From Verrucomicrobiota bacterium (GTDB lineage Bacteria > Verrucomicrobiota > Verrucomicrobiia > Limisphaerales > UBA9464), in contig JANYDN010000184.1 in NCBI GenBank assembly GCA_025363585.1, positions 1-39,828 on the forward strand: a DNA stretch of 39,828 nt, given 5' to 3'. The first letter of the stretch is position 1; every line of letters starts with the position of its first letter. Below are positions 29,824-37,276 of this stretch, piece by piece. The translations under genes and the position numbers were made by a program. The notes under the pieces were generated by a model. The model saw nothing but the letters and a program-made list of their open reading frames with translations. It ran no database searches and was not told the DNA's origin.

Positions 29824-30396
29824 ATGAACTGGCTCGCCCATCTCCATCTGGCGGGACCCGGTTCCGCCGACCGCGTCGGAAGCATCCTGCCCGATCTCCT
29901 CTCGGCCCGCGACTTGGCCGCGTTGCCCGGCCAATTCCGCGACGGCATCGATCGACATCGCCAGGTCGACTCCTATACCGACACCCATCCGGTATTCCTC
30001 CGTAGCAAGCGCCGCATCGATCCTCCCTTCCGCCGCTATGCCGGGATCCTGGTCGACGTCTTTTACGATCATATACTCGCCACCGATTGGGACTTATACG
30101 CCGAGACGCCGCTCCCCGTGTTCGCGGCCGATGTCTATAAATCCTTCGACCTCCACCTCCACGAGCTCCCGGTCGAAGCCCGGGCACGAATGGAGCGGAT
30201 GCGCGATGGCAACCTCTTCTGTGCCTACCGCGACATCGTCGTGATCCGGGAAGTCCTGCAAAGCATGTCCGCGCGGCTCCGGCGTCCGTTCCCGCTCGAC
30301 GACGCCGTCGCGATTTTGGAAGCCCGACGCGAGGACTTCCGGGCGGACTTCCGCGAATTCTTTCCCGACGTAGCGCGGGCGTCCCGCCTCCGGTAG
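29824..30396 (+). CDS. Acyl carrier protein phosphodiesterase (AcpH)-like, DUF479
   Basis: MNWLAHLHLAGPGSADRVGSILPDLL...DRHRQVDSYTDTHPVFLRSKRRI...GILVDVFYDHILA. Confidence 0.88.
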   Translation: MNWLAHLHLAGPGSADRVGSILPDLLSARDLAALPGQFRDGIDRHRQVDSYTDTHPVFLRSKRRIDPPFRRYAGILVDVFYDHILATDWDLYAETPLPVFAADVYKSFDLHLHELPVEARARMERMRDGNLFCAYRDIVVIREVLQSMSARLRRPFPLDDAVAILEARREDFRADFREFFPDVARASRLR

Positions 30397-34482: not shown

Positions 34483-35541
34483 ATGTATCTGACCGGGCTC
34501 GGCACCGCCGTTCCAGTGCGGGGCTTCAGCCAAGCGGAATGTCTGGAGGCTTTGGAGGCAGCGCCCCAATTCCCGCAACTCAAACCCCGGTCCCGGGAAT
34601 TGCTCCGGAAGGTTTTGTCCGCCGACAACGGCATCGCGAAGCGGCACTTCGCCGTGACGGCCCTTGAGGAGGGTTTCGTCCTGACGCCGGATGCCTTGCA
34701 CGCGCGTTTCGTCCGTCATGCGCCCACCCTGGCCGCGCGGTCCGCCGAACAGGCCATGGCAAAGGCCCGGCTCCTTCCCAACGAGGTCGACGCCGTCATC
34801 GTCAGCACCTGCACCGGATACCTATGTCCCGGACTCTCCGGCCACGTGATCGAGGCGCTCGGCCTTCGTCCCGATATCCAGGCGTTGGATCTGGTGGGCC
34901 AAGGCTGTGGGGCGGCCCTGCCGAATTGCCGCGCGGCCTCGGCACTGCTTGCGGCAGGCCAAGCCCGGCACGTGCTGTCCGTCTGCGTCGAGGTCTGCAG
35001 CGCCGCCTTTTATATGGATGACGATCCGGGCGTCCTGATCAGCGCCTGTCTATTTGGTGACGGGGCGGCCGCGGCCCTGTGGTCCGCACGACCCTCCGCG
35101 CATGCGCGCCGGGTGGAATGGACGACGGCGAAGAGCGTCGTGAGTCCCGCGGAACGCGACAGCCTCCGTTTCGAACAGCGCGGTGGAATGCTGCGGAACA
35201 TCCTGAGCCTGGGCGTTCCCAAGCTTGCGGCACGGCATGCCGGGACCCTGCTCGACGAAATGCTGGACGGGGATTCGCCGACGCGCACGGAAGTCGTCGG
35301 CTGGATCCTGCACGCCGGCGGACGCGAGGTCCTGGCGGCATTGCAGAGGCGACTCGGACTGACGCCGGAGGATTTGAGGCCGAGCACCGAGACGCTGCGC
35401 GATTTCGGGAATCTCAGCAGTCCCTTCGTTTTCTTTGTCCTCGATCGCGCGCTCGCCCAAGGTGCCCCGGGCGGCTGGTGGTGGATGTGTTCCTTCGGCG
35501 CAGGATTCAGTTGCCACGGCGCGTTCCTGAAAGTGGATTGA
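34483..35541 (+). CDS. Type III polyketide synthase (chalcone/stilbene synthase family)
   Basis: Thiolase fold with Cys in DLVGQGCGAALPNCR (Cys142), His in GWILHAGGREVL, Asn in GNLSSPF. Confidence 0.93.
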   Translation: MYLTGLGTAVPVRGFSQAECLEALEAAPQFPQLKPRSRELLRKVLSADNGIAKRHFAVTALEEGFVLTPDALHARFVRHAPTLAARSAEQAMAKARLLPNEVDAVIVSTCTGYLCPGLSGHVIEALGLRPDIQALDLVGQGCGAALPNCRAASALLAAGQARHVLSVCVEVCSAAFYMDDDPGVLISACLFGDGAAAALWSARPSAHARRVEWTTAKSVVSPAERDSLRFEQRGGMLRNILSLGVPKLAARHAGTLLDEMLDGDSPTRTEVVGWILHAGGREVLAALQRRLGLTPEDLRPSTETLRDFGNLSSPFVFFVLDRALAQGAPGGWWWMCSFGAGFSCHGAFLKVD

Positions 35542-35544
35542 CCC

Positions 35545-36249
35545 GTGCGCCGCCGTGTCGAACCGGAATTGCTCGATGACCTCCCTGCCGACGATCCAAC
35601 GGCAGTGCGGTCGCGTTCGGATCTGCAGCGCCTCAATCCCATCATGAGGCACCCGCGCATCCTGGCGCGCCTGATCCGCGGTCATGTCGACGAGGCGATC
35701 GTGCGTCGCCGACCGATCCGGTTGGTGGAGCTCGGCGCGGGGGACGGAACATTGCTGCTGCGGTTGGCGCGCGAATGGTCGGCCCGCGGCGCGAGCGTCC
35801 AGGCCACGTTCCTGGACCGACAAGGGCTCGTGTCGGCCGAGACCGTTCGTTTGTTCGCCGCGTCCGATTGGACCGCGAGCAACGTGGTGGCCGACGCGTT
35901 CGAGTGGTTGAAGCAATCGGCTCCGGTCGCGGACGTCATGGTCTCCAACCTGTTCCTTCACCATTTTCCAGACGAAAGACTTCAAGAGCTCCTTTGCATG
36001 GCGGCCGCCAGGACCAATCTATTCGTCGCGTGCGAACCGTGCCGCGCGCCGTTGGCCATGGTCGCCTCCCGGTTGCTTTGGTTTGCCGGGTGCAATGCGG
36101 TCACGCGGCACGACGCGGTCGTCAGTGTCCGCGCCGGATTCGTCGGCCACGAACTGTCCGCCCTGTGGCCGTCGGGTTCCGGTTGGACCCTGGGCGAACG
36201 ACCCGTCGGATGGGTGAGCCACGGTTTCCTCGCAAGGCGAAATGCCTGA
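35545..36249 (+). CDS. Class I SAM-dependent methyltransferase
   Basis: LVELGAGDGTLLLRLAREW, then VADVMVSNLFLHHFPDERL; GTG start 3 bp after the T3PKS stop. Confidence 0.9.
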   Translation: MRRRVEPELLDDLPADDPTAVRSRSDLQRLNPIMRHPRILARLIRGHVDEAIVRRRPIRLVELGAGDGTLLLRLAREWSARGASVQATFLDRQGLVSAETVRLFAASDWTASNVVADAFEWLKQSAPVADVMVSNLFLHHFPDERLQELLCMAAARTNLFVACEPCRAPLAMVASRLLWFAGCNAVTRHDAVVSVRAGFVGHELSALWPSGSGWTLGERPVGWVSHGFLARRNA

Positions 36250-37276
36250 AGCCATCACCATCGTGGGCGGGGGCTTGGCGGGCCTGACGCTCGGCATCGG
36301 CCTGCGGCAACGCGACGTTCCCGTGACGCTCTGGGAGGCGGGACATTATCCGCGGCACCGGGTCTGCGGCGAATTCATCAGCGGCGCCGGGCTGGATTCC
36401 CTCTCCCGACTCGGCCTGCTCGGCGGCCTCAAGGAACTGGGAGCCATCCCCGCCGGCACCGCGGCGATGTTCTCCGACGGGAGGCCCACGGTCCTGCATG
36501 CCCTGCCCCGACCCGCGCTATGCGTTTCGCGCCTCGTGCTGGACGAATGGCTCGCACTGGAATTCCGGCGCCTCGGTGGCGAACTGCGGCTCGATGCCCG
36601 TTGGCTGGGCGACTGCGGCCCCGGGACGGTGCGTGCCAGTGGCCGGCATGCGGAGCCCACGGCGGATGGATGGCGCTGGTTCGGTTTGAAGGCCCATGCC
36701 AGCGGCGTGAAACCGGAGGCCGACGTCGAGTTATACCTCATGCCCTCGGGCTACGTGGGCCTTTGCCGCGTTGGACCGGACACCGTGAATGTCTGCGGAT
36801 TGTTCCGCGTGCGGAGCGCGGTGACCGATCTGGCGCGGCACTGGCGCGATTGGCTGGGAGGCGCGCCGGAATCGGCTCTGCACCGGCGCATGCTCGACGC
36901 AAACTTCGACGAGGATTCCTTCTCCTCCGTGGCTGGCCTTTGTCTAAGACCGGGTCGGGGAATTCTCTCCGCGGAATGTCGCGTGGGCGACGCACTCACC
37001 CTGATACCGCCCATGACTGGAAACGGGATGTCGATGGCGTTCGAATCCGCGGAATTGGCCGTGGAGCCGATCGCGAGGTTCCATCGTGGCGAACGAACCT
37101 GGGAAGAGACACGGCGGGAAATAGCAACCGCATGCGACCGGCGTTTCGCGCGAAGGCTTCGGTGGGCGGCCTGGCTGCAATGGGCCCTGTTCCAACCGGC
37201 GGCCCGTTCCGTGTTGTTGATGGCGGCCGCCCGCTCGAAATGGCTTTGGAACCATTCGTTCAACCAGACGCGCTGA
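36242..37276 (+). CDS. FAD-dependent oxidoreductase (geranylgeranyl reductase/monooxygenase-like)
   Basis: ITIVGGGLAGLTLGIGLRQRDVPVTLWEAGHYPRHRVCGEFISG; DALTLIPPMTGNGMSMAFESAELA; overlaps the methyltransferase by 8 bp. Confidence 0.92.
   Translation: MPEAITIVGGGLAGLTLGIGLRQRDVPVTLWEAGHYPRHRVCGEFISGAGLDSLSRLGLLGGLKELGAIPAGTAAMFSDGRPTVLHALPRPALCVSRLVLDEWLALEFRRLGGELRLDARWLGDCGPGTVRASGRHAEPTADGWRWFGLKAHASGVKPEADVELYLMPSGYVGLCRVGPDTVNVCGLFRVRSAVTDLARHWRDWLGGAPESALHRRMLDANFDEDSFSSVAGLCLRPGRGILSAECRVGDALTLIPPMTGNGMSMAFESAELAVEPIARFHRGERTWEETRREIATACDRRFARRLRWAAWLQWALFQPAARSVLLMAAARSKWLWNHSFNQTR

What the first reader, a model, noticed from the sequence alone, without database searches (positions are those of the whole stretch)
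34483..37276. Compact type III PKS - methyltransferase - FAD oxidoreductase operon
T3PKS (34483-35541) with intact Cys/His/Asn is followed 3 bp later by a SAM methyltransferase, which overlaps a FAD oxidoreductase by 8 bp. The gene order parallels Streptomyces griseus srsABC (T3PKS, methyltransferase, flavin hydroxylase) that makes methylated phenolic lipids/quinones. In a PVC-like genome the product is unknown; a membrane phenolic lipid or alkylquinone is a reasonable hypothesis.
Basis: partly seen in the sequence, partly recalled or inferred. Interest (0 to 1): 0.66.

Follow-up and report, generated by a model that had tools for sequence, protein, structure and literature searches.

The report
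Verrucomicrobial type III PKS phenolic-lipid operon
Three adjoining genes in an uncultured Verrucomicrobiota bacterium form a widely conserved cassette that most likely builds an alkylresorcinol (a phenol ring with a fatty tail) and then methylates and oxidises it; similar cassettes are already known in planctomycetes and cyanobacteria, so this is a new, uncharacterised member of a known kind.

Summary
A type III PKS (34483-35541, Cys142/His277/Asn310), a class I SAM methyltransferase (35545-36249, 3-bp gap) and an FAD oxidoreductase (36242-37276, 8-bp overlap) form a compact three-gene unit. It is no chance neighbourhood: 78 of 80 related loci have the methyltransferase next, and 70 of 73 with enough sequence have both partners. 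The srsABC parallel is functional, not familial. SrsB is an isoprenylcysteine-methyltransferase-type enzyme whereas this one is class I, and the resorcinol-directing Trp of SrsA-type enzymes is an invariant Phe here. The closer known kind is hidABC (cyanobacterial hierridins) and the planctomycetal methyltransferase-oxidoreductase-PKS operon, whose PKSs make alkylresorcinols. Other Verrucomicrobiota carry the homologous cassette in exactly that order; the window's clade has the permuted order PKS-MT-FAD. The permuted clade also occurs in Burkholderiales, Xanthomonadales and Nitrospirota, including a complete Caballeronia plasmid, which implies transfer between phyla. The best reading is a ring-methylated, ring-oxidised long-chain alkylresorcinol or quinone. 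No product is shown, and HidABC or planctomycete sequences could not be compared directly. New member of a known kind; moderate interest.

The parts
34483..35541 (+). Type III polyketide synthase, 352 aa; catalytic Cys142, His277, Asn310; second active-site-region Cys110; Phe230 at the Pks11 Trp230 (ArsB Trp281) position
35545..36249 (+). Class I SAM-dependent methyltransferase, 234 aa, GTG start, PRK06202-like; probable ring C- or O-methyltransferase
36242..37276 (+). FAD-dependent oxidoreductase, 344 aa, geranylgeranyl-reductase / group A monooxygenase fold, RVCGE motif; probable ring oxidation

Best explanation
A three-gene biosynthetic operon. The T3PKS loads a fatty acyl starter, extends it about three times with malonyl-CoA and closes the ring by aldol condensation to an alkylresorcinol. 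The class I methyltransferase then methylates the ring (carbon or oxygen) and the FAD enzyme oxidises it (hydroxylation, possibly to a hydroquinone/quinone), giving a membrane-soluble methylated phenolic lipid. Shown: the genes, intact catalytic residues, fold classes, strong co-conservation, and homology to verrucomicrobial cassettes in the hidABC/planctomycete order. Inferred: starter, ring closure, position of methylation, the FAD reaction and the biological role.
For: Co-conservation of all three genes. A sister cassette in other Verrucomicrobiota orders in the order MT-FAD-PKS: 14 of 20 sampled loci, PKS 40-50%, MT 30-39%, FAD 33-46% identity. This matches the hidABC and planctomycetal operons, whose PKSs make 5-alkylresorcinols, with C-methylation when the G. 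maris mtr+fdo genes are co-expressed (PMC10896814). [quoted passage not shown] An aromatic Phe (96/101, Tyr in 4) sits at the cyclisation-steering position (role of that Trp from PMC6274091 and PMC5916927). Two proteobacterial cassettes add an ACP and a FabF-type KS, and one has a phosphopantetheinyl transferase upstream, which fits a carrier-bound acyl starter. One betaproteobacterial cassette replaces the FAD gene with a second methyltransferase. In Deinococcus radiodurans the same slots hold a PRK06202 methyltransferase and a UbiH-like hydroxylase. The FAD model is closest to phenol/pyrrole halogenases, PqsL and hydroxylases.
Against: No product is known for any member of this clade. The PKS is only about 30% identical to T3PKSs outside its family and its nearest named NCBIfam model is DpgA (sub-threshold). 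Phe is not the canonical Trp, and CylI, reported as an alkylresorcinol former, has Leu there, so the residue is not diagnostic. The FAD family lacks a clear 'DG' motif and could be a reductase. C- versus O-methylation cannot be told.
Confidence: 0.6

Rival explanations
1. The PKS lactonises its chain to long-chain alkylpyrones, which the MT O-methylates, as with BpsA/BpsB in Bacillus; the FAD enzyme acts on the alkyl chain or is a reductase.
For: The top PDB sequence match is Pks11, annotated as an alpha-pyrone synthase. The canonical resorcinol Trp is absent. The FAD protein's best NCBIfam model is the geranylgeranyl reductase family.
Against: The steering position is an invariant aromatic residue, not Gly as in ArsC. 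The same three-function operon in planctomycetes and cyanobacteria gives resorcinols.
Confidence: 0.18
2. A malonyl-only small aromatic (3,5-dihydroxyphenylacetate-like, DpgA-type) that is methylated and oxidised.
For: DpgA is the best NCBIfam hit (159 bits; 174 for a Burkholderiales member). DpgA joins nearest the family in the tree (91, long branch) and its aligned steering residue is also Phe.
Against: The score is far below the DpgA cut-off of 425. No dpgB/dpgC-like genes recur in the neighbourhoods, unlike a true dpgABC locus. Some relatives have ACP and KS genes instead.
Confidence: 0.1
3. A polyketide-quinone pathway (like pkqABC of mycobacteria and Streptomyces) whose product is an alternative respiratory electron carrier.
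For: Same three functions and the same PKS-MT-oxidoreductase order as the PkQ operon (PMC9927152).
Against: The host keeps two MqnA/MqnD-type futalosine menaquinone genes and UbiA-type prenyltransferases, so it would be at most supplementary. PkqA-type PKSs have the Trp that is missing here. The cassette is patchy: 46 of 289 genomes of the phylum.
Confidence: 0.1

Closest known systems
Planctomycetal MT-oxidoreductase-T3PKS operon (Gimesia maris, Rhodopirellula baltica; PMC10896814)
   Same: Same three functions in a compact operon in the PVC superphylum; class of product tested there is 5-alkylresorcinol. Other Verrucomicrobiota show the identical gene order with proteins homologous to the window's.
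   Different: Window order is PKS-MT-FAD, not MT-FAD-PKS. Direct sequence identity could not be measured.
hidABC of picocyanobacteria (hierridins; PMC8086630, PMC10896814)
   Same: Methyltransferase, oxidoreductase and T3PKS; the hidC>hidA>hidB order reported for some cyanobacteria equals the window's order.
   Different: Hierridin is di-O-methylated and some are chlorinated; nothing is known of the verrucomicrobial product. Sequence kinship not tested.
srsABC of Streptomyces griseus / pkqABC
   Same: Gene order and overall logic: T3PKS, methyltransferase, flavin enzyme.
   Different: SrsB is an ICMT-family enzyme, the MT here is class I; the T3PKS lies outside the group of ICMT-associated T3PKSs and lacks the Trp.
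Deinococcus radiodurans T3PKS-MT-FAD locus
   Same: Same order with 8-bp overlaps; MT is a PRK06202 member.
   Different: PKS 26-28% identical; FAD is a UbiH-like monooxygenase, not the GG-reductase type.

Membership tests
Type III polyketide synthases | Thiolase-fold Chal_sti_synt/FAE1_RppA domains above cut-off and Cys-His-Asn triad | tested here: met
srsABC-type operon | ICMT-family methyltransferase (SrsB) | tested here: not met
   MT is class I (PRK06202, Methyltransf_25/23; Rossmann-type model); SrsB is ICMT; ICMT genes do follow other T3PKSs
srsABC-type operon | Trp at the ArsB Trp281 / Pks11 Trp230 position | tested here: not met
   Phe230 in the window, Phe in 80/81 of its clade
srsABC-type operon | Flavin-dependent ring hydroxylase third gene | tested here: inconclusive
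   Group A monooxygenase/halogenase/GG-reductase fold; reaction not assignable
hidABC / planctomycetal alkylresorcinol operon | MT, FAD oxidoreductase and T3PKS in one compact operon | tested here: met
hidABC / planctomycetal alkylresorcinol operon | Usual order MT-oxidoreductase-PKS | tested here: not met
   Window is PKS-MT-FAD; the usual order is met in 14 of 20 sampled sister loci of the phylum. The alternative hidC-hidA-hidB order is reported in cyanobacteria
hidABC / planctomycetal alkylresorcinol operon | About 50% protein identity to HidA/B/C | not testable with these tools
   No HidABC or planctomycete genome sequence could be reached; the attempt via a planctomycete plasmid locus failed
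hidABC / planctomycetal alkylresorcinol operon | Alkylresorcinol product | not testable with these tools
   needs expression and LC-MS
DpgA (3,5-dihydroxyphenylacetyl-CoA synthase) | NCBIfam NF042429 above cut-off 425 bits, with dpgB/dpgC neighbours | tested here: not met
   159 bits; no such neighbours
Flavin-dependent halogenases | Conserved active-site Lys about 60-90 residues after the FAD motif | tested here: inconclusive
   No conserved Lys between residues 45 and 110 of the family alignment; invariant Lys is at 150; no residue-level alignment to a halogenase was made

The most novel reading that the evidence does not exclude
A T3PKS cassette, rearranged within the Verrucomicrobiota and passed between Verrucomicrobiota, Pseudomonadota and Nitrospirota, makes an undescribed methylated alkylresorcinol or quinone class from carrier-bound starters, with a non-canonical Phe-directed aldol cyclisation and possibly a role as a supplementary respiratory quinone.
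Probability: 0.12. Interest if true: 0.62.

Novelty: new member of a known kind. Interest (0 to 1): 0.36.

Why it matters
Verrucomicrobiota are abundant, little-cultured soil and freshwater bacteria whose lipids and secondary metabolites are barely known. The work shows a defined, uncharacterised T3PKS family with fixed tailoring partners, found in about one in six sampled genomes of the phylum and shared across phyla, and links it to the planctomycete/cyanobacterial alkylresorcinol operons. It makes a concrete chemical prediction that complete genomes of the phylum would allow to be tested.

Tried and rejected
Direct kinship with srsABC: rejected on MT family, PKS grouping and the missing Trp. 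DpgA: rejected by score and context. Flavin halogenase: the fold search ranks halogenases first, but no conserved Lys lies in the expected stretch; not pursued. Link with the acyl-carrier-protein phosphodiesterase at 29824-30396: 4 kb away, separated by genes on both strands and absent from the other loci, so taken as coincidence. ArsB/ArsC did not appear among the 60 best PDB matches shown in three searches, so the Trp281 site was located through Pks11 Trp230 and the text of PMC5916927. Proof of transfer direction: the Pseudomonadota/Nitrospirota group is one clade (97) and sits inside the verrucomicrobial group in the tree, but holding Verrucomicrobiota together is not rejected (AU p 0.30), so the direction is open.

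Full report
Observation. Pfam and NCBIfam identify a type III PKS, a class I SAM methyltransferase nearest to PRK06202, and an FAD oxidoreductase nearest to the geranylgeranyl-reductase family. The MT falls just under the Pfam gathering scores, but its AlphaFold model (pLDDT 95) matches SAM methyltransferases. The FAD model (pLDDT 88) matches flavin halogenases, PqsL, squalene epoxidase, a GG-reductase and hydroxylases. Flanking genes run on the opposite strand, so the unit is three genes long.

Host. The window is contig 293 of a 5.1-Mb, 90%-complete genome. A same-genus genome (G007) gives the same contig coordinates as UBA6176 (DITU01000111.1), labelled Verrucomicrobia. It holds one true T3PKS; the second Chal_sti_synt hit is the KAS III part of a fusion protein.

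Co-conservation. The PKS recalled 80 loci in genome contigs at 56-72% identity. The MT follows directly in 78 of 80, and MT plus FAD follow in 70 of the 73 loci with enough downstream sequence. In the window's nearest relatives the spacing is the same (MT 6 bases after the last PKS codon, FAD start overlapping the MT end), whereas the outer neighbours differ. Exceptions are informative: L073 carries a PRK06202-like MT plus a second, UbiE/CMAS-like methyltransferase and no FAD gene.

Two architectures. In a sample of the phylum, 46 of 289 genomes hold a relative at E<=1e-50. Of 20 such loci from other orders and classes, 14 have the order MT-FAD-PKS, with PKS 40-50%, MT 30-39% and FAD 33-46% identical to the window's proteins. 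That is the order of cyanobacterial hidABC and of 58 planctomycetal operons (PMC10896814). The window's clade therefore has a permuted version of the same cassette; a hidC>hidA>hidB order is also reported in cyanobacteria (PMC8086630). In the PKS tree the two architectures separate, and both lie in one group (99) apart from all reference T3PKSs.

Spread between phyla. Burkholderiales, Xanthomonadales and Nitrospirota sequences form one clade (97) inside the permuted group. A complete Caballeronia plasmid carries PKS-MT-FAD-ACP-KS, so this is not only mis-binning. A Lysobacteraceae locus has the same ACP and KS (KS 60% identical) and a phosphopantetheinyl transferase upstream. These cassettes, and a few verrucomicrobial ones (L087, L092, L099), carry a longer (about 400 aa) and strongly diverged FAD protein (about 26% identity to the window's). 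The tree does not settle the direction of transfer (AU p 0.30).

Mechanism. Cys142-His277-Asn310 are invariant, so decarboxylative condensation is expected. ArsB uses Trp281 as a steric wall for aldol closure while ArsC has Gly and lactonises (PMC6274091); the same Trp is reported in SrsA, FtpA and Pks11 (PMC5916927). In Pks11 it is Trp230 by the numbering of the alignment, and the aligned residue here is Phe230, Phe in 96 of 101 family members and Tyr in 4. An aromatic wall is kept but not the canonical one; CylI has Leu, so the residue suggests but does not prove resorcinol formation. The MT and FAD steps are inferred from the planctomycete result (mtr+fdo give a C-methylated alkylresorcinol) and from the FAD fold class. 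C- versus O-methylation and hydroxylation versus another oxidation remain open.

Comparison with srsABC. The order and logic agree, the parts do not: SrsB is an ICMT-family enzyme (PMC6669644), and the T3PKSs that sit next to ICMT genes in Nitrobacter and Azospirillum plasmids fall in a different group. It works like srsABC but is not shown to be a member.

Quinone idea. The host has two MqnA/MqnD-type futalosine menaquinone genes and UbiA-family prenyltransferases; the only MenD-like hit is far below cut-off. A polyketide quinone, as in mycobacteria and Streptomyces (PMC9927152), would be supplementary at most.

Verdict. A real, conserved, three-gene phenolic-lipid-type operon; an uncharacterised, rearranged and laterally spread member of a known kind. 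The main gap is that no HidABC or planctomycetal sequence could be placed in the tree.

Noticed in passing
Own genome, contig C372 (L150:1016-3919, minus; runs off the contig end): A fusion protein of at least 967 aa joining 2-oxoacid dehydrogenase E1-alpha, E1-beta, a lipoyl domain and a beta-ketoacyl-ACP synthase III. Weak PKS hits lie in similar open frames of about 1140-1230 aa in many relatives. It would couple acyl-CoA supply to fatty-acid chain initiation.
   Followed up: partly
L060, L065, L072, L075, L080, L081, L086, L091, L094, L096, L097, L103, L104, L109, L112, just downstream of the FAD gene: In 15 loci, mostly Limisphaerales/Pedosphaera, a conserved gene of about 215 aa that reads as thiamine-phosphate synthase (ThiE-like, by eye) follows the cassette.
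   Followed up: no
L113:9192-10708 and L100:11174-12660: A dedicated ACP and FabF-type ketosynthase follow the cassette in Caballeronia and a Lysobacteraceae bacterium, hinting at a carrier-bound starter.
   Followed up: partly
L120:3992-6951: Deinococcus radiodurans has a distant T3PKS / PRK06202 methyltransferase / UbiH-like monooxygenase operon with 8-bp overlaps, followed by a glycosyltransferase and a phospholipase D-like gene.
   Followed up: partly
L033-L112, FAD gene: The third gene diverges far more between the verrucomicrobial and proteobacterial cassettes (about 26% identity) than PKS or MT (50-60%), which suggests replacement or a change of reaction.
   Followed up: partly
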